Shown: in pieces, positions 34,276 to 45,783 of the stretch
Position numbering within the stretch: the stretch's first letter is position 1
How the letters are laid out: every line of letters starts with the position of its first letter
Assembly: GCF_025244825.1 (NCBI RefSeq)
Contig: NZ_CP104263.1
Location: 2,480,001-2,544,000 of the forward strand
DNA from: Arthrobacter jinronghuae
Lineage (GTDB): Bacteria; Actinomycetota; Actinomycetes; Actinomycetales; Micrococcaceae
DNA length: 64,000 nt
Reading direction: 5' to 3'
Made by a program: the position numbers and the translations under genes
The notes under the pieces: generated by a model
Database searches by the model: none
Told to the model about the DNA's origin: nothing
The model's input: only the letters and a program-made list of their open reading frames with translations

Positions 34276-34740
34276 GTGAACCGAGCGAGCAAGTCCCTGC
34301 TGAGTGCCGCCGCCGGCCTGTCCCTGCTGTCTGCCGCCGGCTGTGCCGCGGGCGAGGAAACCGCCGGCGCCGGCCAGGCCCCGGCTGAGCCCCCTGCGTC
34401 TTCCCCCGCCTCCGCCCCCGGCTCTGCAGCCGGTTCCGGAAGCTACGCCGACGGCGAGTACTCGGGCACCGGAAGCTACATCCCGCCGTCGGGCACTTCC
34501 GAAGACGTGGACGTTACGCTGCGGCTCGAGGGCGGCGTGGTGGCGGAGCTGGAGGTGGAGACCTCGCAGAAGAACCCGACGTCCAAGCAGTACCAGCGTG
34601 AGTTCACTTCCAATGTGAAGGAGCAGGTGGTCGGCAAGAACCTCGACGAGCTGGACGTGGACAAAGTGGCCGGATCCTCGCTGACCAGCGAAGGCTTCAA
34701 CCGTGCCCTGGACGCCATCCGGTCCGAAGCCGCTTCCTAG
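34276..34740 (+). CDS. FMN-binding lipoprotein (NqrC/RnfG-like domain)
   Basis: A 154-residue exported lipoprotein. The signal ends in a lipobox (LLSAAGC, Cys23) followed by a Pro/Ala/Ser linker of about 30 residues. The remaining domain fits the FMN_bind family: GSYADGEYSGTGSYIPP, then DVTLRLEGGVVAELEVE, and at the C-terminus VAGSSLTSEGFNRALDAI. Thr137 in that last motif is where ApbE would attach FMN, although the usual SGAT core is changed to AGSS. The GTG at 34276 follows AAGGAGAAAC. The next gene, ten bases downstream, is apbE, which makes it a likely substrate. Confidence 0.85.
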   Translation: MNRASKSLLSAAAGLSLLSAAGCAAGEETAGAGQAPAEPPASSPASAPGSAAGSGSYADGEYSGTGSYIPPSGTSEDVDVTLRLEGGVVAELEVETSQKNPTSKQYQREFTSNVKEQVVGKNLDELDVDKVAGSSLTSEGFNRALDAIRSEAAS

Positions 34741-34750
34741 GACAGCACCC

Positions 34751-35620
34751 GTGCACACACTGGGATTCGAGGCGATCGGTACGCAGTGGTCCCTGTCCAC
34801 TGCCTCGCCCCTGGATCCCGGCACCCGGGCTGCAGTAGCGGACGTAGTGGAGAGCTACGACAGGACCTATTCGCGCTTCCGCTCCGATTCCACGGTTGCG
34901 CGGATGGCCGAGGCTGCGGGCAGCTTTATCCTGCCCGCTTCGGCCGTGCCGTTGCTGCGGCTCTTCGATTCGCTGTGGCAGATCACCGGGGGTGCGGTTA
35001 ATCCGCTGGTGGGGCGCTCGCTTGAGGTGTTGGGGTACGACGCCGGGTACAGCTTCCTGCCCTCCGGCCCGCCCGCGCCCGCAGCGTCCTGGACGGACAC
35101 CGTGTCCTGGAGCACCGACGGCCGGGGAACCGTACTGACCACTGCCGCTGAAGTGACCTTCGATATCGGTGCTGCCGGCAAGGGCCAGCTGGTGGACCTG
35201 GTCAGCGAGGTCCTGGAAACCGCAGGCCACCGGGAATACGTGGTGGATGCCGGTTCTGACCTGCGCCATGCCGGTGCCGCTCCCCTGCGGGTTGCGTTGG
35301 AACATCCGTATGACACGAAGCGGGCCATCGGGGTGCTGACCCTCTCGGACCGTGCATTGTGCGCCTCGGCCGTCAACCGCCGGCAGTGGGGAGACGGGCT
35401 GCACCATGTGCTCGATGCCCGCACCGGTTCCCCGGTGGACACGGTCGCGGCCACGTGGGTGCTGGCGGCGGACGCGATGACGGCGGACGGCCTGGCCACT
35501 GCCCTGTTCTTTGCCGAGCCGCAGGAGCTGAGCGGCACCTTCTCCTTTGACTATGTCCGGATGTTCACCGACGGCCGGGCCGACTATTCCCCTGCAATGG
35601 CTGGAGTCCTATTCCCATGA
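34751..35620 (+). CDS. apbE: FAD:protein FMN transferase
   Basis: ApbE splits FAD and joins FMN to a Thr or Ser of target proteins by a phosphoester bond, normally outside the membrane. The 289-residue protein has the family features YDRTYSRFRSDSTVARM, GGAVNPLVGRSLEVLGYD, FDIGAAGKGQLVD (FAD- and Mg-binding), YVVDAGSDLR and HHVLDARTGSPVD. No signal peptide is visible, so it may act on the cytoplasmic side or before export. Its stop overlaps the next start (ATGA), coupling it to the membrane reductase. Confidence 0.92.
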   Translation: MHTLGFEAIGTQWSLSTASPLDPGTRAAVADVVESYDRTYSRFRSDSTVARMAEAAGSFILPASAVPLLRLFDSLWQITGGAVNPLVGRSLEVLGYDAGYSFLPSGPPAPAASWTDTVSWSTDGRGTVLTTAAEVTFDIGAAGKGQLVDLVSEVLETAGHREYVVDAGSDLRHAGAAPLRVALEHPYDTKRAIGVLTLSDRALCASAVNRRQWGDGLHHVLDARTGSPVDTVAATWVLAADAMTADGLATALFFAEPQELSGTFSFDYVRMFTDGRADYSPAMAGVLFP

Positions 35621-37134
35621 GCATTTCCGCCCCCGCTGCTCCCCGTACGCTGAACACCTTCCTGGGGCGTTGGACCATGTACCGGTTCACGGTCTGGGTG
35701 CTGCTGGCAATTGCTGCCTGGTCCTTTGTCCTTTCCTTCGCCGGAGTGCTCTTCTACACGCCAGCGGAGCTGGGAGCGACGGCGGTGACGGCGTTGGCCT
35801 CGACCCTGGTCACCAGCCGTGTGGCGGGGCTGCTGCTGCGTACCCGCCCGCAGACCGACTCCTCGCTGATTACCGGCCTGCTCCTGTTTTTCCTCTTCTG
35901 GCCCAGCACCGACGGTGTACAGCTGGGTTGCGTGGCCCTGGCCGGAGCAGTGGCAACGGCATCCAAATACCTCCTGGTGTTCCGGCGGCGGCACATCTTC
36001 AACCCGGCAGCGGCGGGGGCGTTTGTGGTGGCAGTAACCGGGCTGGGCGGTGCTGTCTGGTGGGTGGCGACTCCGGGCATGCTGATCGTTGTCCTTCCGG
36101 CCGCCGTCCTGGTGCTGTACCGGAACCGTCTGCTGCCGATGGCCGGGGTTTTTGCCCTGACTGCTGCCGTTGTTGTCCTGGCCCGCTTCCTCGCGGGCGG
36201 CGAGTCCGTCTCCTACGCCCTGGCAACCATCGTCGGAAGCTATCCTCTGGTGTTCCTGGCCGGCTTCATGCTTACCGAACCGCTGACCCTGCCTCCGTTG
36301 CGCTCCCAGCGTCTGGCGGAGGCCGTCGTCGTCGGCGTTCTTTTTGCCGTGCCGCTGTCCCTGGGTCCGGTGATGATGTCTCCGGAGCTGGCGCTGCTGA
36401 TCGGCAACGCCCTCGCGTTTGCGATGGGCCAGCGCGGAGCTGTCCGGCTGCGGCTGCGCGAAACCCGGGAACTGACCCCTACGGCCCGTGAGCTGGTGTT
36501 CGAGCCGATACGTCCCGTCCGCTTCCGTGCCGGCCAGTACGTGGAACTTGCCGTGCCGCATTTTGAGCCGGATTCTCGGGGAACGCGGCGTATTTTCAGC
36601 ATCACTACTGCGCCGTCGGAACCCGGCACAGTGGCGGTGGGGCTGCGCGTGGCCGAACCGGGCAGCACCTTCAAGACCGCTCTGTTGAAGATGCGCCCCG
36701 GAGCGGAGGTGGCGGCTACTACCGTTGCCGGGGACTTCCTGTTGCCGCGGGACAAACGGACACCGGTGCTCATGATCGCTTCCGGTATCGGCATCACTCC
36801 TTTCATCAGCCAGCTGCGGCAGGTCCGCGGTGAGGACCGGGACATTGTGCTGGTCTACGCGGCGTCCTCCGTTGAAGAGCTTGCCTATGCCGGAGAACTG
36901 CAGGATCTGGGGGTTCGGGTGCTGGTCTGCACGCCGTCGGATCCGGGGATTCCGGGCTGGACCTGGTTGGGTCCGGGGCTGCCGGACGCTGTGGTCCTGC
37001 GTACGGAGGTTCCTGACCTGGCAGCTCGGACGGCTTACGTTTCGGGTTCGCCCCAGGCGGTGGCTGCTGCCCGCAAGGCCGTCCGGAGTGCCGGCGGCAG
37101 GCGGGTCCGCACCGACCCGTTCCTGGGGTACTAA
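35617..37134 (+). CDS. NqrB/RnfD-like membrane domain fused to FNR-type reductase
   Basis: A 505-residue fusion. Residues about 20-270 form a membrane domain of seven to nine helices resembling RnfD/NqrB (TDSSLITGLLLFFLFWPS, FRRRHIFNPAAAGAFVV, FLAGFMLTEPLTLPP). Residues about 275-505 form a soluble flavin reductase: RFRAGQYVELAVPH and RRIFSITTAPSE for FAD, VLMIASGIGITPFISQL for NAD(P)H, ending in YVSGSPQAVAAARKAV. No [2Fe-2S] cysteine cluster is present and I find no SGAT flavinylation motif in the RnfD-like part. With the FMN lipoprotein and ApbE it suggests electrons pass from cytoplasmic NAD(P)H through membrane flavin to extracellular FMN. Final acceptor unknown. Confidence 0.85.
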   Translation: MSISAPAAPRTLNTFLGRWTMYRFTVWVLLAIAAWSFVLSFAGVLFYTPAELGATAVTALASTLVTSRVAGLLLRTRPQTDSSLITGLLLFFLFWPSTDGVQLGCVALAGAVATASKYLLVFRRRHIFNPAAAGAFVVAVTGLGGAVWWVATPGMLIVVLPAAVLVLYRNRLLPMAGVFALTAAVVVLARFLAGGESVSYALATIVGSYPLVFLAGFMLTEPLTLPPLRSQRLAEAVVVGVLFAVPLSLGPVMMSPELALLIGNALAFAMGQRGAVRLRLRETRELTPTARELVFEPIRPVRFRAGQYVELAVPHFEPDSRGTRRIFSITTAPSEPGTVAVGLRVAEPGSTFKTALLKMRPGAEVAATTVAGDFLLPRDKRTPVLMIASGIGITPFISQLRQVRGEDRDIVLVYAASSVEELAYAGELQDLGVRVLVCTPSDPGIPGWTWLGPGLPDAVVLRTEVPDLAARTAYVSGSPQAVAAARKAVRSAGGRRVRTDPFLGY

Positions 37135-39453: not shown

Positions 39454-39526
39454 GCCCTCGTAGCTCAGGGGATAGAGCGGTTGCCTCCGGAGCAACAGGC
39501 CGTAGGTTCGAATCCTATCGAGGGCA
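39454..39526 (+). tRNA. tRNA-Arg (anticodon CCG)
   Basis: A complete cloverleaf: acceptor stem GCCCTCG/CGAGGGC with discriminator A, D-loop GCTCAGGGGATAGAGC, anticodon arm GTTGC-CTCCGGA-GCAAC with anticodon CCG at 39487-39489, and T-arm GTAGG-TTCGAAT-CCTAT. It reads CGG codons, which are frequent in this genome. CCA is not encoded. Confidence 0.97.
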
Positions 39527-39541
39527 CATTGAGACATAAGA

Positions 39542-40311: not shown

Positions 40312-40890
40312 ATGAAGACCCTGAACATCAAAGAAGAGCTCGCACGGACCTCCGTGGAGCTTTTCGCGCGGCACGGCTACGCAAAAACGAGCGTGCAGCA
40401 GATCGTCGACGCGGCCGGGGTGACAAAAGGCGCGCTCTATCACTACTTCAATTCCAAAGACGACCTGCTCTTTGACATCTATGACCGCATCCTGACCCTC
40501 CAGCGCGAGCACCTGACCGAGATCATCGGACGGGGGCTGCCGGCAGTTGAAACCATGCGCCTGGTCTGTGAAGACGTGATCATGACGTCCATCGACTGGA
40601 TCCGTGAAGGATCCGTGTTCTTCCGCTCCCAGCACATGCTCAGCGAGGACCGCCAGGAGGAAGTGAAGCGGAGGCGACGCGAATACAACGAGGCGTTCAC
40701 CGCCCTCTTGGTCCGCGGCCAGTCCGACGGCGTCTTCCGCACCGATATTCCGATTCCGGTGCTGGCTGCCAACTTCTTCTCCGACCCGCACTATCTCTCG
40801 TACTGGTACTCCCCCGGCGGGTCCATCAGCCGCGAACAGGCGGCCGCCCAGCTGACCGACCTTTACCTGGCCGGACTGCAGGCAAAGTAA
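40312..40890 (+). CDS. TetR family transcriptional regulator
   Basis: A 192-residue repressor-type regulator. The N-terminal helix-turn-helix domain reads LFARHGYAKTSVQQIVDAAGVTKGALYHYFNSKDDLL. The helical C-terminal ligand domain includes IDWIREGSVFFRSQHM and FFSDPHYLSYWYSPGGSISREQAA. This pattern resembles regulators of fatty-acid or aromatic acyl-CoA genes, which sense CoA thioesters, but the ligand is not readable. It lies 106 bases upstream of the Liv transporter operon, transcribed in the same direction, and operator 1 lies before it. Confidence 0.92.
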   Translation: MKTLNIKEELARTSVELFARHGYAKTSVQQIVDAAGVTKGALYHYFNSKDDLLFDIYDRILTLQREHLTEIIGRGLPAVETMRLVCEDVIMTSIDWIREGSVFFRSQHMLSEDRQEEVKRRRREYNEAFTALLVRGQSDGVFRTDIPIPVLAANFFSDPHYLSYWYSPGGSISREQAAAQLTDLYLAGLQAK

Positions 40891-40996
40891 CCGACTTACC
40901 GCACCACGGCACCTCCTCAATACAGCACCACCGCACCTCCCGCACCACCTTCAAGGCAGCACCATGCAAGGTAAGAGCAGAGACGATGGAGTACTC

Positions 40997-41782
40997 ATGC
41001 AGGAGCAACATACCGACCGGTCGGAACCGCCGCGTCTCCGCTTGGACGGCATCACCGTCCGGTTCGGCGGCCTCACGGCGCTGGACTCGGTGTCCCTGGA
41101 CATCCCCGCAGGCAGGATCGTGGGGGTCATGGGTCCCAACGGAGCAGGAAAGACCACTCTGTTCAACGTCATCTGCGGGGTGTTCCCGCCCACGGAGGGC
41201 AGCCTGGAGCTGGATGGACAAGGCTTTACCCCTCGTCCGCACAACCTGACCCGCTCCGGCGTCGCACGCACCCTGCAGGGGCTCGGTCTGTTCCCCGGGC
41301 TGACCGCGCTGCAGAATGTCACGGCAGGTCTGGCTGCCGGATCCCGCGGGGGCCTCGACCTCCTGGCCCTGCCCGGCGCCGTCCGCAGGGAAGCCCGGCT
41401 CGCAGAGCGGTCGATGCAAGCACTGGAGGCCCTCGGCATCGGCGGGTACGCCGCGTCCCTGTCCGACACCCTTCCCTACGGCATCCGCAAAAAGGTGGCC
41501 CTGGCCCGGGCGCTGGTCAGCGAACCGAGGCTGCTGCTGCTGGATGAACCTGCCGGCGGGCTTAGCCACGACGATATTGAGGAACTGGCTTCCATCATCC
41601 GCACCGTGCCCGGCGACGGGTGTTCGGTGGTGCTGGTAGAACACCACGTGGACCTGGTCATGGACGTCTGCGACCGCATCGCCGTACTGGACTTCGGCCG
41701 CCTGATCGCCGAAGGAACACCGGCCGAAATCGGTGCCGATCCCGCCGTCGCAGATGCCTACCTGGGAGTTGAGGTGGCATGA
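40997..41782 (+). CDS. livG: Branched-chain-amino-acid-type ABC transporter ATPase LivG
   Basis: A 261-residue ATP-binding subunit of a HAAT-family importer. Walker A is GPNGAGKTTLFNV and Walker B LLLLDEPAGG. The signature region reads LPYGIRKKVALARAL where LSGGQ is standard, a variation usual in LivG. The LivG-type C-terminal extension (EGTPAEIGADPAVADAYLGVEV) is present. I chose the ATG at 40997 (GGAG upstream); another ATG lies 11 codons earlier. Operator 2 overlaps codons 5-10 with this start, so the true start may differ. It overlaps livF by four bases. Confidence 0.9.
   Translation: MQEQHTDRSEPPRLRLDGITVRFGGLTALDSVSLDIPAGRIVGVMGPNGAGKTTLFNVICGVFPPTEGSLELDGQGFTPRPHNLTRSGVARTLQGLGLFPGLTALQNVTAGLAAGSRGGLDLLALPGAVRREARLAERSMQALEALGIGGYAASLSDTLPYGIRKKVALARALVSEPRLLLLDEPAGGLSHDDIEELASIIRTVPGDGCSVVLVEHHVDLVMDVCDRIAVLDFGRLIAEGTPAEIGADPAVADAYLGVEVA
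41011..41026 (+). promoter_or_regulatory. TetR-type operator 2, at the livG start
   Basis: TACCGACCGGTCGGAA differs from operator 1 at three positions and shares the flanking ACA before it. It lies 14 bases downstream of the ATG at 40997, so either the repressor blocks elongation here or livG starts further downstream. Confidence 0.65.
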
Positions 41783-42498
41783 CCGCCGCACTGGTATTGG
41801 AAGGCGTCAGTGCGGGTTACGGCGCCGTCCGGGTGCTGCACGGGATCGACCTTTCGGTGGCGGAAGGCTCCATCACCACCGTCGTAGGGGCCAACGGGGC
41901 CGGCAAGACCACCCTCCTGCGGACCATCACCGGCCAGCTGCGGCCCTCGGCCGGCAGCATCCGCATCAAAGATGGAAAGGACCTGACCCGGGTACCGGTC
42001 GAGGACATGGTGCGCCACGGCGTCGCACTGGTTCCCGAAGGCCGCGGCGTCATCACCGAACTGACGGTGGATGAAAACCTGCGCCTGGGCGGGCTGTGGC
42101 GGAAGGACCGTAAGGCAGCGGATGAGGTGCTCACCGGGATGTACGAACTCTTCGAGCCCCTTGCCCGACGCCGGAAGGCTGCCGGACACCAGCTCTCGGG
42201 CGGCGAGCGCCAGATGCTTGCGCTGGGGCGGGCCCTGATGGCCGCACCGTCGCTCCTCCTGCTGGACGAGCCGTCCCTGGGACTGGCCCCCAAGGTGACC
42301 GCACAGATCCTGGGCATGCTGCGCCGCCTCCGCGACGACACCGGCCTGACCGTACTGCTGATCGAGCAGAACGTCCGGAGTGCACTCGCTGTCGCGGACC
42401 ACGGGGTAGTGCTCAACCTCGGCCGCATTGTCGCCTCACGGCCGGCGGCCGAGCTGGCCGAAGACACCGACCTCCGCCACACCTACCTGGGGTTCTAA
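41779..42498 (+). CDS. livF: Branched-chain-amino-acid-type ABC transporter ATPase LivF
   Basis: The 239-residue second ATPase, with GANGAGKTTLLRT (Walker A), LSGGERQMLALGRAL (signature), LLLLDEPSLGL (Walker B) and the LivF-typical ending DLRHTYLGF. It pairs with LivG to power import through the LivH-LivM channel. Start overlaps the livG stop (ATGA), and its last base is the first base of livH. Confidence 0.95.
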   Translation: MTAALVLEGVSAGYGAVRVLHGIDLSVAEGSITTVVGANGAGKTTLLRTITGQLRPSAGSIRIKDGKDLTRVPVEDMVRHGVALVPEGRGVITELTVDENLRLGGLWRKDRKAADEVLTGMYELFEPLARRRKAAGHQLSGGERQMLALGRALMAAPSLLLLDEPSLGLAPKVTAQILGMLRRLRDDTGLTVLLIEQNVRSALAVADHGVVLNLGRIVASRPAAELAEDTDLRHTYLGF

Positions 42499-43376
42499 TG
42501 GACAGATTTCTTTTCCTCACCTTTGACGGCCTCGCCCGCGGCGCGGTCCTCGCTGCCTTCGCGCTCTCCCTGGTGCTGATCTGGCGTGCAGCCCGGATCG
42601 TGAACTTTGCGCAGGGCGCGATGGCGGTGGCGGCAACCTACATTGCCTTCACGGTCACCGCCCTCACCGGAAGCTACTGGGCCGGACTCGCCGCTGCCCT
42701 CGTAGCGGGTTTCCTCATCGGAGCCCTGGTGGAACGCGGCGTCATGCGCTTCGTGGGCAACAGTTCCGCCCTGAACCCGGTCATTGCCGGGCTGGGCCTG
42801 CTGATGCTGATCCAGGCCATTTTGGGCATGGTGTTCGGGAACAGCTACCGGACCATGGTGACGCCGTTCAGCTCAAACCCGGTGGAGATCTTCGGCATTA
42901 CCGTCTTCTCCTCCTATGACCTCTTCGTCTTTGCCTGCATAGCCCTTTTGGTAGGCGGACTGGTCCTGCTGTTCACCAAGACGCCCCTGGGACTGCGGCT
43001 GCGGGCCTCCGCCTTCGCCCCGGACCTGGCCCGGCTCCTCGGCGTGCGGACCTCGCGGATGCTCACCCTGGGCTGGGCCATGTCCTCCGCCCTGGGCGCG
43101 CTCGCCGCCCTGTTGGTCATTCCCACCGAGCTGGGACTCAATCCGCATGCCGCGGACACGGTCTTCGTTTATGCGTTCACCGTTGCCGTCATCGGCGGAC
43201 TGGACTCCCCCGCCGGTGCCGTGCTGGGCGGACTGGCCGTGGGGGTGCTGCTGAGCTGGGTCAGCGGCTACGGGGGCGCCACCCTGGCGCCCATCGCCAT
43301 CCTGCTCCTGCTGCTGGCCGTACTGCTGGTCCGCCCCGGCGGAATCTTCTCGATGACCAAGGAGCGAACGGTATGA
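42498..43376 (+). CDS. livH: Branched-chain-amino-acid-type ABC transporter permease LivH
   Basis: A 292-residue permease with about eight membrane segments. It shows the family motif RAARIVNFAQGAMAVAATY near the N-terminus and the cytoplasmic coupling region RLLGVRTSRMLTLGWAMSSALGALAALL. The last part GGLDSPAGAVLGGLAVGVL is typical. It forms the channel with LivM. Confidence 0.94.
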   Translation: MDRFLFLTFDGLARGAVLAAFALSLVLIWRAARIVNFAQGAMAVAATYIAFTVTALTGSYWAGLAAALVAGFLIGALVERGVMRFVGNSSALNPVIAGLGLLMLIQAILGMVFGNSYRTMVTPFSSNPVEIFGITVFSSYDLFVFACIALLVGGLVLLFTKTPLGLRLRASAFAPDLARLLGVRTSRMLTLGWAMSSALGALAALLVIPTELGLNPHAADTVFVYAFTVAVIGGLDSPAGAVLGGLAVGVLLSWVSGYGGATLAPIAILLLLLAVLLVRPGGIFSMTKERTV

Positions 43377-44506
43377 GCGTCACCAAGCGGTATGGCTTTG
43401 CCGGGGCCGCAATGGTCCTGCTGATCGGACTGACGTTTGTCATCCCGTCGTTCTCCTCGTACCAGCTCGCCACTGCCTGCGCCTACCTGTGCGGGATCGC
43501 CGGGCTCACCCTGCTGACGGGCGCCGGAGGCCAGCTGTCCCTTGGGCAGGCGGCCCTCATGGCTGCCGGAGCCTACAGCTACGCGTTAACCGCCAATACA
43601 ATGGCCGACGCCGGCACGGAGGGCCCGCTGCTGCTCCTGGTGCCGCTGGCCGCAGCTGTCATCGGTGCAGCCGTCCTCGGCCTGGTGATCGGACTCGCGG
43701 CCGGGCGGCTTCACGGCCCCTATCTGGCCGGCTTCACCATGGCGCTGGTGGTGGCCCTTCCCGCGGTCACCAGCACGTTCTCCTCGGTGCTTGGCGGAGA
43801 CCAGGGGTTGTGGATCACCGTGGAAAAACGCCCGGCCTCGCTGCGCGGCATTGTGTCCAATGAAGCATGGCAGGCGTGGCTCGCCGTCGTCTGCTCCGTC
43901 CTGGTCCTGACCCTGCTGGCGAACCTGCTGCACGGACGCTTCGGCCGGCACCTGCGGGCCGTGCGGGACAACCCAGTGGCGGCGGCGCTCGCCGGCATCA
44001 ACCCGGCCCGCACCAAAGTCACGGCCTTCGTCATCAGCTCCGCCGCGGCAGGGATGGGCGGCGGCCTGCTGGCGTACACCACGCAGAGTGCCGGTCCAGG
44101 GGCCTACTCACTGGTGTTCTCCCTCTTCCTGCTTATGGCCGCCGTGGTCGGCGGCATCGGTTCCCTGACCGGAGCAGTCTGGGGCGCCGTGCTCCTGGTT
44201 GCCCTGCCGCACCTGATCAGCACGGCCACTTCCCGGCTCGAACTGTCCACGGACCTTGCCCAGCGGCTGGACGGCAACCTTGCGGTTGCCATCTTCGGAC
44301 TGGTCCTGGTCCTCGTGGTGCTGCTTGCCCCGCAGGGCATCCAGGGCCTGCTGGTCCGGGCCGGCCGCCGGCTGGGTCAGGCCCGTTCCGTTTCCGTTCC
44401 GCCGCAGTCCGCAAAATCCGCACCGTCACCAGCATCCAGTACACCCACCCGGTTATCCGCCCGGCATGAGCCCGAGCAGCTACCGGCAACCCCGAAAGGT
44501 CAATGA
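43373..44506 (+). CDS. livM: Branched-chain-amino-acid-type ABC transporter permease LivM
   Basis: A 377-residue permease with about nine to ten membrane segments. Typical parts are GGQLSLGQAALMAAGAYSYAL, RAVRDNPVAAALAGINPARTKVTAFVISSAAAGMGGGLL and GGIGSLTGAVWGAVLL. The C-terminal 50 residues are Ser/Pro/Ala-rich and polar. ATGA overlaps at both ends show a tightly coupled operon. Confidence 0.94.
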   Translation: MSVTKRYGFAGAAMVLLIGLTFVIPSFSSYQLATACAYLCGIAGLTLLTGAGGQLSLGQAALMAAGAYSYALTANTMADAGTEGPLLLLVPLAAAVIGAAVLGLVIGLAAGRLHGPYLAGFTMALVVALPAVTSTFSSVLGGDQGLWITVEKRPASLRGIVSNEAWQAWLAVVCSVLVLTLLANLLHGRFGRHLRAVRDNPVAAALAGINPARTKVTAFVISSAAAGMGGGLLAYTTQSAGPGAYSLVFSLFLLMAAVVGGIGSLTGAVWGAVLLVALPHLISTATSRLELSTDLAQRLDGNLAVAIFGLVLVLVVLLAPQGIQGLLVRAGRRLGQARSVSVPPQSAKSAPSPASSTPTRLSARHEPEQLPATPKGQ

Positions 44507-45783
44507 TGATCCGTTCCAAGCTCCGACTGGGCACCGCCGTCCTTGCAGCCGCTGCCCTCGGCCTGGCCTCATGCGCTTCACCGGACGAAGGAGGCGAGGC
44601 AGCCGCCGAAGATGTTCCCGGAATCACCGACACCACCGTCACCGTCGGTACCCACCAGCCGCTCACCGGACCGGCAGCGGCCGGCTACTCCACGATTTCA
44701 CCGGCCACGAAGGCATACTTCGATTACGTCAACGACAACGGCGGAGTCAACGGCCGCACCATTGAGTACATCGTGAAGGATGACGGCTACAACCCCGCCA
44801 ACACCCAGACGGCGGTACGCGAGATGGTGCTCCAGGACGAGGTCTTCGCCCTCGTGGGCGGACTCGGCACGCCGCCGCACAGCGCTGTCCTGGATTTCGT
44901 AAACGACAACGAGGTGCCGGATCTCTTCGTGGCTTCCGGCAGCCCCACCTGGAACCAACCCGAGGACTACCCGTATACCTACGGTTTCATGGTGGACTAC
45001 CCCACCGAGTCACGGATCCTCGCCACCTATGCGCAGGAAGAGTTCCCGGACAAGACCTACTGCTTCTTCGGCCAGGATGATGACTTCGGCGAGGAATTCC
45101 AGGCGGGGCTTGAAGCGGTGCTCGGAGAGGACGGCCTGGCCGACACCCAGGTCTACTCAACGGCCAATACCGATGTCGCGGCGCAGATCAGTGCGATGAA
45201 GGAAGCCGGCTGCGAAGTTAACTTCCTGGCAACCATCAACGGCTTCAGTGCCCAGGCAGTGGGGACGGCGGCGAAACTCGGCTACTTCCCGCAGTGGATG
45301 GCTTCCTCGGCCGGCGGGGATTTCAACACCCTGTCCGGCTATCTGGGCGAGAACACGAACAAGCTGCTGCAGGGCTTCGTCAGCGCCAACTACCTCCCGG
45401 GCTATTCGGACACCGAGGACGAGTGGACGGCAAAATTCTCCGAAATCAACGAGGAGTACAACGCCGGGGCTCCGTTTGACGGCAACACCATTTTCGGAAT
45501 GTCCATCGGCTACCTCTTCGTTGAGGCGCTCAAGGAAGCCGGGGAGAACCCGACCCGGGAATCCCTGCTCGAAGCACTCGAATCCGGCAACGTCACCGGC
45601 AACGGCCACGCACCGCTGGGCTTCGGCGAAGACAGCCACCAGGGGTACACCGGAGCAATGCTGACCCGGGTGGACAACGGCGTGCAGTCCTACTTCGGGA
45701 CCCCGTTCGTGGTAACAGGTGACGAGGTGGAGGAATACACCGAAGAACGGCCTGCCATGCCGGCAGACGGCCTGCCCGAGTAG
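44503..45783 (+). CDS. livK: Substrate-binding lipoprotein of the Liv-type transporter
   Basis: A 426-residue extracellular binding protein. The signal peptide ends with the lipobox LGLASC (Cys24). The mature part is a type I periplasmic-binding fold with ITDTTVTVGTHQPLTGPAAAGY, YIVKDDGYNPANTQTAVREMV and VGGLGTPPHSAVLDFVNDN. This type binds leucine/valine, amides, aromatic acids or other small acids. The ligand is not predictable, but the TetR, FabG and MaoC neighbours point to an acid metabolised as a CoA ester. It closes the liv operon, followed by a strong terminator. Confidence 0.93.
   Translation: MMIRSKLRLGTAVLAAAALGLASCASPDEGGEAAAEDVPGITDTTVTVGTHQPLTGPAAAGYSTISPATKAYFDYVNDNGGVNGRTIEYIVKDDGYNPANTQTAVREMVLQDEVFALVGGLGTPPHSAVLDFVNDNEVPDLFVASGSPTWNQPEDYPYTYGFMVDYPTESRILATYAQEEFPDKTYCFFGQDDDFGEEFQAGLEAVLGEDGLADTQVYSTANTDVAAQISAMKEAGCEVNFLATINGFSAQAVGTAAKLGYFPQWMASSAGGDFNTLSGYLGENTNKLLQGFVSANYLPGYSDTEDEWTAKFSEINEEYNAGAPFDGNTIFGMSIGYLFVEALKEAGENPTRESLLEALESGNVTGNGHAPLGFGEDSHQGYTGAMLTRVDNGVQSYFGTPFVVTGDEVEEYTEERPAMPADGLPE

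What the first reader, a model, noticed from the sequence alone, without database searches (positions are those of the whole stretch)
34276..37134. Minimal three-gene trans-membrane flavin electron-transfer module
An FMN-binding lipoprotein, an ApbE flavin transferase and a single-chain fusion of an NqrB/RnfD-like membrane domain with an FNR-type NAD(P)H reductase are encoded in one tight unit. Seen: the domain motifs, the lipobox, the 10-base gap and the ATGA overlap. Known: Nqr and Rnf complexes spread these functions over six subunits, and ApbE attaches FMN to NqrC/RnfG. Inferred: this trio does the same job alone, moving electrons from cytoplasmic NAD(P)H to an extracytoplasmic flavin for metal reduction, redox repair or respiration. 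The usual SGAT flavinylation motif is altered to AGSS in the lipoprotein and not found in the membrane part; both points deserve testing. The acceptor is unknown.
Basis: partly seen in the sequence, partly recalled or inferred. Interest (0 to 1): 0.72.

Follow-up and report, generated by a model that had tools for sequence, protein, structure and literature searches.

The report
Three-gene flavin electron-export module
Three neighbouring genes in an Arthrobacter genome encode a small machine of an already described type that probably passes electrons from inside the cell to a flavin-carrying protein outside; the open puzzle is that the enzyme expected to attach the flavin appears to stay inside the cell while its target is exported.

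Summary
In detail: a lipoprotein with a divergent FMN-binding domain, an ApbE flavin transferase and an NqrB/RnfD-FNR fusion form one tight unit (34276-37134) in an Arthrobacter genome. The reading is broadly right, but this kind of system is published as 'NQR/RNF-like' (Meheust 2021; Huang 2024), including the missing flavin site in the membrane subunit.

Added here: (1) 28 of 28 fusion-bearing genomes in a 248-genome order sample hold all three genes, same order and strand. (2) AGSS is conserved, not decay: Ser sits at the FMN-acceptor position in 116 of 116 database relatives and 102 of 102 distinct trio lipoproteins matching the family profile. The likely FMN site is Ser135, not Thr137. 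One distant trio, outside that count, keeps SGAT. (3) The trio's ApbE shows no hydrophobic N-terminus in 105 of 107 loci although its substrate is an exported lipoprotein; this points to flavinylation before export. (4) Three of four regions read around fusion-less relatives look like iron-uptake clusters; B. breve apbE and sifABCDE mutants share ferrous-chelator sensitivity.

Flavinylation and electron transfer are untested; the acceptor is unknown, iron the best guess.

The parts
34276..34740 (+). FMN-binding lipoprotein (154 aa): signal peptide with lipobox Cys23, low-complexity linker, divergent FMN_bind domain (aa 75-146), motif AGSSLTS with probable FMN acceptor Ser135
   Evidence: ORF; Pfam (20.5 bits, cut-off 22); 43 of 54 relatives match FMN_bind; motif conservation
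34669..34683 (+). flavinylation motif region: codons Ala132-Gly133-Ser134-Ser135-Leu136 of the lipoprotein
   Evidence: AGSS at residues 132-135, S135 and T137 checked; position by codon arithmetic from 34276
34741..34750 (.). 10-base gap between lipoprotein stop and ApbE start
34751..35620 (+). ApbE, FAD:protein FMN transferase (289 aa), no hydrophobic N-terminus; Ser, His and Asp at the places of the published catalytic triad
   Evidence: Pfam 136 bits; alignment to 6nxi; N-terminus; only ApbE match in the genome
35617..37134 (+). NqrB/RnfD-like membrane domain (about aa 1-276, ten hydrophobic segments) fused to a FAD/NAD(P)H reductase of FNR type (about aa 277-505, C-terminal Tyr), predicted cytosolic; no 2Fe-2S domain
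   Evidence: ATGA overlap 35617-35620
36238..36249 (+). Ser208-Tyr209-Pro210-Leu211: position of the SGAT flavinylation site of RnfD, here without Thr
   Evidence: hhalign to E. coli RsxD; residues; family count

Best explanation
This is an actinobacterial NQR/RNF-like transmembrane flavin electron-transfer system. Shown by sequence: the gene cluster and its conservation, a membrane domain of ten hydrophobic segments with alternating positive loops that places the FNR part in the cytosol, absence of the membrane FMN-Thr, and a conserved Ser in the lipoprotein's flavinylation slot. Inferred: FAD in the FNR part takes hydride from NAD(P)H, passes electrons to a non-covalent flavin in the NqrB/RnfD-like domain, and that reduces FMN on Ser135 of the lipoprotein on the outer face; the lipoprotein then reduces an outside acceptor, most likely iron for uptake. 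Also inferred: the operon's ApbE, which shows no signal peptide, attaches the FMN before the prolipoprotein is exported.
For: Domains. Topology: 10 hydrophobic segments in aa 28-276, Lys+Arg in successive stretches 3,0,2,0,3,0,2,0,2,0, then 18 at the start of the FNR part. Co-inheritance: 28 of 28 fusion genomes in a 248-genome order sample have lipoprotein, ApbE and fusion in one order; in 80 named loci, the best 80 of 313 found, at least part of ApbE lies before the fusion in 80 and the lipoprotein in 78, the two others lying at a contig end. Flavin slot: Ser in 116 of 116 database relatives (own protein included) and in 102 of 102 distinct trio lipoproteins that match the family profile. 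Membrane site: 0 of 120 close and 1 of 111 located distant relatives carry Thr/Ser, E. coli RsxD control reads SGAT. ApbE Ser, His and Asp conserved against 6nxi (triad named in PMC12052999; matching the motifs to those residue numbers is my recall). Published models of the same architecture: PMC8238504 sections 8 and 13, PMC11334425 section 9. Iron: in three of four regions read, fusion-less relatives of the lipoprotein sit in iron-type clusters; FTR1 and P19 confirmed by Pfam in L212, FTR1 in L209. B. breve apbE and sifABCDE mutants are both sensitive to ferrous chelators only (PMC5449479, passages).
Against: In the papers I saw, the NQR/RNF-like system rests on gene clusters and models, not on biochemistry. 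The motif departs from the published [S/T]GA[S/T] at positions 1 and 3, and the Asp three residues before it is variable. PF03116 does not fire on this protein and the direct comparison with E. coli RsxD has only 20% probability. The lipoprotein profile found nothing credible against E. coli RsxG. I recognised no recurrent iron gene beside the trio; the fourth region read around a fusion-less relative (L207) showed no iron cluster; the own genome has FTR1 far away and no P19 match. A signal-less ApbE does not fit the usual picture of extracytosolic flavinylation. No structure could be predicted.
Confidence: 0.8

Rival explanations
1. The system works as an electron exporter, but not for iron: it feeds an extracytoplasmic repair or respiratory enzyme (for example methionine sulfoxide or disulfide repair, quinone or extracellular acceptors).
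For: No iron gene that I recognised recurs beside the trio. Only 6 of 127 published NQR/RNF-like clusters carried a VIT1 iron transporter (PMC8238504 section 13). One of four regions read around fusion-less lipoprotein relatives (L207) is not an iron cluster.
Against: No oxidoreductase partner that I recognised recurs beside the trio either. Three of four regions read around fusion-less relatives look like iron-uptake clusters.
Confidence: 0.4
2. The lipoprotein is no longer flavinylated; AGSS is a decayed motif, and FMN binds non-covalently or not at all, with ApbE acting on some other cytosolic protein.
For: Motif positions 1 and 3 differ from the consensus and FMN_bind scores below its cut-off. 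ApbE shows no signal peptide. Substitution at the Ala of the motif lowered flavinylation in a model protein (PMC12052999, passage).
Against: Ser at the acceptor position never varies in the sets counted (116 of 116 and 102 of 102); ApbE lies beside the lipoprotein on the same strand in 28 of 28 genomes and is the only ApbE match of the genome; Ser is an accepted ApbE target (PMC11334425, PMC12052999, passages). Searches of the own genome for FMN_bind and PF03116 gave no match, but they also missed the trio's own divergent proteins, so this is weak.
Confidence: 0.12
3. ApbE is exported after all by a non-classical route, and flavinylation happens outside as in other bacteria, using exported FAD.
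For: The lipoproteins have a hydrophobic N-terminus in 102 of 103, and the flavinylation of exported proteins described in PMC12052999 and PMC9973259 (passages) is extracytosolic. In a wider test over the first 45 residues 4 of 107 trio ApbEs reach the hydropathy threshold.
Against: No hydrophobic stretch before the first ApbE strand in 105 of 107 trio ApbEs, E. coli ApbE control 2.68. The ApbE domain match starts 26-131 bases after the lipoprotein's match in 28 of 28 genomes, which leaves little room. The distant G093 trio also shows none. ApbEs of five genomes with fusion-less lipoproteins show no obvious one by eye, one of them unclear because of a long upstream frame.
Confidence: 0.2

Closest known systems
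NQR/RNF-like flavinylation-associated systems (Meheust et al. 2021 eLife; Huang et al. 2024 mSystems)
   Same: Same fusion of NqrB/RnfD-like membrane domain with an NAD-binding reductase, same extracytosolic FMN-binding partner, ApbE or FMN-binding gene defining the cluster, no flavin site in the membrane subunit, reported mainly from Actinobacteria and CPR; named relatives of the distant G093 fusion are also Humimicrobiaceae and CPR
   Different: Lipoprotein acceptor is Ser in a GSS motif instead of [S/T]GA[S/T]; this lipoprotein and fusion fall below the Pfam cut-offs of the families used there (PF04205, PF03116), so such loci may have been undercounted; ApbE without signal peptide
Na+-NQR and RNF complexes (NqrB/NqrC/NqrF; RnfD/RnfG)
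   Same: Homologous membrane domain, FMN_bind subunit and FNR-type reductase
   Different: No other subunit genes beside the trio, no 2Fe-2S domain, no covalent flavin site in the membrane domain; one-way electron path and no ion pumping are inferred
P19/FTR1 iron clusters with FMN-binding lipoprotein (bfeUO-sifABCDE of Bifidobacterium breve)
   Same: A lipoprotein relative with Ser acceptor (AGAS) found by the trio's lipoprotein profile in a cluster of that gene order (L212); ApbE without obvious signal peptide in the same genome
   Different: No fusion match at E <= 1e-50 in the 12 fusion-less genomes; ApbE 0.6 kb away and divergent in G311, about 8 kb in G439, about 17.5 kb in G426, another contig in G503
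Gram-positive EET system of Listeria (FmnB, PplA, EetB/FmnA)
   Same: ApbE-type flavinylation of an exported protein that transfers electrons outward
   Different: FmnB is extracytosolic and needs exported FAD (PMC9973259, passages); membrane electron carrier is unrelated (recalled)

Membership tests
NQR/RNF-like system (PMC8238504) | Membrane protein with N-terminal domain homologous to NqrB/RnfD (detected there by PF03116) | tested here: met
   By family, not by a direct Pfam hit: PF03116 gives no hit on this protein, but matches 6 of 13 relatives at E <= 10, best 1.2e-6, and is over its cut-off in P0110 and in the G093 relative (that relative is 30% identical to this protein); hhalign to E. 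coli RsxD P = 0.0011, probability only 20%; ten hydrophobic segments
[quoted passage not shown]
   25.2 bits, cut-off 22; positive-inside pattern
NQR/RNF-like system (PMC8238504) | Cluster holds ApbE or FMN-binding gene, at least one with signal peptide or lipidation site | tested here: met
   ApbE 136 bits; lipoprotein N-terminus with Cys23
NQR/RNF-like system (PMC11334425) | Membrane subunit lacks the Thr flavinylation site of NqrB/RnfD | tested here: met
   Leu211 at the site; 0 of 120 close relatives have Thr/Ser, 1 of 111 distant ones with the site located, 120 tried
NQR/RNF-like system (PMC11334425) | The two subunits form a complex that brings the flavins together | not testable with these tools
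ApbE-flavinylated FMN_bind protein | FMN_bind domain PF04205 | tested here: met
   20.5 bits against cut-off 22 for this protein, so under the strict threshold; 43 of 54 relatives match at E <= 0.01, best 8e-9 being the distant SGAT protein
ApbE-flavinylated FMN_bind protein | Motif [S/T]GA[S/T] with Ser/Thr acceptor | tested here: inconclusive
   AGSS: Gly and acceptor Ser fit, positions 1 and 3 do not; flavinylation itself not tested
Extracytosolic ApbE | Signal peptide or lipid anchor on ApbE | tested here: not met
   By hydropathy: none before the first strand in 105 of 107 trio ApbEs, this one included; E. coli control positive
Na+-NQR / RNF complex | Six-subunit operon | tested here: not met
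   The flanking genes are argS and a DUF222 gene, both on the other strand. The genome search for PF03116 gave no match but also missed the trio's fusion, so it does not exclude a divergent complex elsewhere

The most novel reading that the evidence does not exclude
In these actinobacterial systems FMN is attached in the cytosol: a signal-less ApbE loads Ser135 of the unfolded prolipoprotein, and the Sec machinery carries the covalent flavin across with the protein. That would remove the need for an FAD exporter, could explain the altered GSS motif as co-adapted to a cytosolic enzyme, and would re-explain the iron phenotype of the B. breve apbE mutant as loss of SifE flavinylation instead of a defect in Fe-S repair.
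Probability: 0.45. Interest if true: 0.72.

Novelty: new member of a known kind. Interest (0 to 1): 0.36.

Why it matters
The trio is a very small, self-contained candidate machine for moving electrons from NAD(P)H through a membrane to a covalent flavin, so it is a good model for that chemistry, but its kind is published. What would matter is the topology: if the enzyme that loads the flavin is cytosolic and its target is exported, the flavin must travel through the export machinery on the protein. That would be a second way to solve the FAD-supply problem of extracytosolic flavinylation, for which an ECF-type FAD exporter is described in Listeria (PMC9973259, passages).

Tried and rejected
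Thr137 as FMN site: held less likely, because AGSSLTS aligns with SGATxTS so that Ser135 takes the acceptor place; the +2 residue is Ser in 2 of 102 distinct trio lipoproteins and Cys in a second, fusion-less copy in genome G371 (L211). In the 116 database relatives both Ser135 and the +2 Thr are invariant, so conservation there does not choose between them.

Decayed system: held unlikely; the trio and the acceptor Ser are kept across several families of the order.

Split version of the fusion: standalone FNR-like matches (about 230 aa) of families f12 and f22 in the phylum sample were looked at in six regions (L139, L142-L146); none held an ApbE or lipoprotein match, so they are taken as separate small reductases. 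Of 37 genomes over E 1e-20 in that sample only five (G000, G008, G214, G257, G093) match the full length.

Neighbourhood as a clue to the acceptor: I read the 28 commonest neighbour clusters of 80 named loci by eye, without a family search. The commonest outside the trio, in up to 49 of 80 loci, follow this window's order of housekeeping genes (argS and lysA by Pfam; hom, thrC, thrB by recall); I recognised no recurrent redox or metal gene outside the trio.

The PDB search with the lipoprotein profile gave only signal-peptide and chance matches. The promoter scan found none and the terminator scan was at chance level. NADH versus NADPH preference of the FNR part was not decided. Without a model no fold search was made.

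My first script for the membrane site was one residue off; the E. coli control showed it and the count was repeated. The first lipobox count picked wrong cysteines and was replaced; the same call's ApbE test over 45 residues gave 4 of 107 over the threshold, against 2 of 107 in the narrower test.

Print status: searches were made for flavinylation and ApbE with signal peptide, cytosol, motif, serine, Actinobacteria, Arthrobacter and SifE; in the listings and the passages opened I saw no statement of pre-export flavinylation or of the GSS motif. Subscription papers and supplementary files were not seen.
Full report
What is there. The window lies in a 3.64 Mb single-contig genome whose nearest named relatives are Arthrobacter strains, mostly of the zg-Y series. 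Between argS and a DUF222 gene, both on the minus strand, three genes read to the right: a lipoprotein (34276-34740), an ApbE (34751-35620) and a 505-aa fusion (35617-37134), with a 10-base gap and an ATGA overlap. ApbE is unambiguous (136 bits) and is the only ApbE match in the genome. The lipoprotein hits FMN_bind at 20.5 bits, under the cut-off of 22; 43 of 54 aligned relatives hit it at E <= 0.01. The fusion hits PF00175 over its cut-off; PF03116 does not fire on it, but matches 6 of 13 relatives at E <= 10 (best 1.2e-6) and is over the cut-off in P0110 and in a distant full-length relative from genome G093. A profile comparison to E. coli RsxD gives P = 0.0011 but only 20% probability, covering the conserved L-T-[DE]-P-x-T region; the homology claim rests mainly on the relatives. 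The lipoprotein profile against E. coli RsxG gave nothing credible.

Anatomy. Hydropathy gives eleven segments over the threshold: ten in residues 28-276 and a weak one (382-400) inside the reductase. The Lys/Arg counts of the stretches around the ten are 3,0,2,0,3,0,2,0,2,0 and then 18, so N-terminus and reductase are predicted cytosolic. There are two Cys and two His in 505 residues, so no 2Fe-2S domain as in NqrF and no obvious haem pair. At the place of RnfD's SGAT the protein reads SYPL; of 120 close relatives 0, and of 111 distant relatives with the site located (120 tried) 1, has Thr or Ser there, while E. coli RsxD reads SGAT in the same test.

Conservation of the trio. In 80 named loci, the best 80 of 313 found, at least part of ApbE lies before the fusion in 80 and the lipoprotein in 78; in the other two (L048, L052) the contig starts too close. 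In a sample of 248 genomes of the order, 28 match the fusion at E <= 1e-50, two of them (G522, G500) over part of its length; 129 have an ApbE match and 40 a lipoprotein of this family at E <= 1e-6. All 28 fusion genomes hold the three genes on one strand in one order; the gap between the ApbE and fusion matches is 81-185 bases in 26 of them, 432 in G500 and 697 in G455. Named and unnamed sets overlap (L007 and L112 share an ApbE sequence), so they are not independent. In a phylum sample of 296 genomes five have the full-length fusion; two of these, G214 and G093, lie outside the order. Both hold the trio, G214 with about 2.6 kb between lipoprotein and ApbE.

The motif. Among 116 database relatives (own protein included) the four residues are AGSS 100, GGSS 9, LGSS 3, VGSS 1, ATSS 1, GSSS 1, SGSS 1; the acceptor is Ser and the +2 residue Thr in 116. 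Among 105 trio lipoproteins found by the family profile (102 distinct) it is AGSS 79, SGSS 17, ASSS 3, GGSS 2, SGAS 1; acceptor Ser in 102, +2 residue Thr in 100 and Ser in 2. This set leaves out lipoproteins that the profile does not reach: the G093 trio has VDTVSGATNTS, with Thr; its named fusion relatives are Humimicrobiaceae and CPR bacteria. L137 (G214) and L141 (G455) were read apart and have AGSS. So SGAT to GSS looks derived within Actinobacteria, on one outgroup only. Fusion-less relatives read AGAS. The published motif is D-x-x-[S/T]-G-A-[S/T] with Ser accepted and Thr preferred (PMC12052999, passages; PMC11334425, passages). Flavinylation of Ser135 is likely, not shown.

ApbE location. 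In 105 of 107 trio ApbEs (L001, L048, L052 and L084 left out as duplicate, truncated or misread) the stretch between the lipoprotein stop and the first conserved ApbE strand has no 12-residue window of mean hydropathy 1.6 or more; the exceptions are L067 and L078. In the same kind of test 102 of 103 lipoproteins pass (L133 and L136 also left out), and E. coli ApbE scores 2.68. Over the first 45 residues, domain included, 4 of 107 ApbEs reach 1.6. This is a hydropathy test, not a signal-peptide predictor. For ApbEs outside the trio I only read N-termini by eye: 18 of 30 loci gave a frame, several with long upstream frames, and five more genomes; no clear signal peptide was seen, but nothing was counted. 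The Listeria paper says that extracytosolic ApbEs need extracytosolic FAD (PMC9973259, passages); Meheust 2021 required a signal on only one gene of a cluster (section 23). The simplest reading is cytosolic loading before export; I found no report of it and it is untested.

Function. The published model is one-way transfer from NAD(P)H to the extracytosolic flavin (PMC8238504 section 13; PMC11334425 section 9), and the anatomy fits it. For the acceptor the only lead is indirect. Twelve of the 40 genomes with the lipoprotein family have no fusion match. I read four of those regions: L208, L209 and L212 look like iron-uptake clusters with FtsX-type ABC genes, L207 does not. Pfam confirms FTR1 and P19 in L212 and FTR1 in L209; other names there are by eye. 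The L212 order matches the bfeU-bfeO-sifABCDE order described for B. breve, where mutants in sifABCDE and in apbE are both sensitive to ferrous chelators only (PMC5449479, passages); I did not see whether sifE itself was mutated, and the authors read apbE as Fe-S formation or repair. My inference is that ApbE loads SifE. PMC8238504 section 15 reports 260 P19 clusters with an FMN-binding gene. The own genome has FTR1 far from the trio and no P19 match.

Verdict. Real, conserved, and of a published kind. The acceptor-site shift and above all the signal-less ApbE with exported substrate are the points worth a bench test.

Noticed in passing
L212, L209, L208 (genomes G503, G426, G439): Fusion-less relatives of the trio's lipoprotein lie in iron-type clusters (FTR1, FtsX-type ABC genes, P19 in L212) like B. 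breve bfeUO-sifABCDE; the published apbE::Tn5 phenotype there may reflect loss of SifE flavinylation instead of Fe-S repair.
   Followed up: partly
L207 (G311): Another fusion-less lipoprotein relative with ApbE about 0.6 kb away on the other strand and no iron genes recognised in 15 kb.
   Followed up: no
L147-L176, L214-L218: ApbEs of other systems in the order also seem, by eye, to lack signal peptides; this may be general for Actinobacteria with exported FMN_bind substrates.
   Followed up: partly
L211 (G371:C1:3258543-3258896): A second lipoprotein copy reads AGASGCSEGF, with Cys at the +2 position.
   Followed up: no
L137 (G214): About 2.6 kb with other reading frames separate the lipoprotein from ApbE in this otherwise intact trio.
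   Followed up: no
L119 (G517:C1:1558346-1559860): The search reports one TGA inside the fusion match; not checked whether it lies upstream of the true start or breaks the gene.
   Followed up: no
P0091: A fusion 52% identical is labelled Vibrio cholerae in the database; probably a contaminated record.
   Followed up: no
window 39454-39527 (+): tRNA-Arg (CCG), the only tRNA found in the window, between the DUF222 gene and a TetR gene.
   Followed up: no
window 40964-45783: Branched-chain amino acid type ABC transporter genes (ATPase, permease, binding protein) beside a TetR regulator at 40312-40890.
   Followed up: no
L139, L142-L146: Small standalone FNR-type reductases related to the fusion's C-terminal part in genomes of families f12 and f22, without trio genes.
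   Followed up: partly
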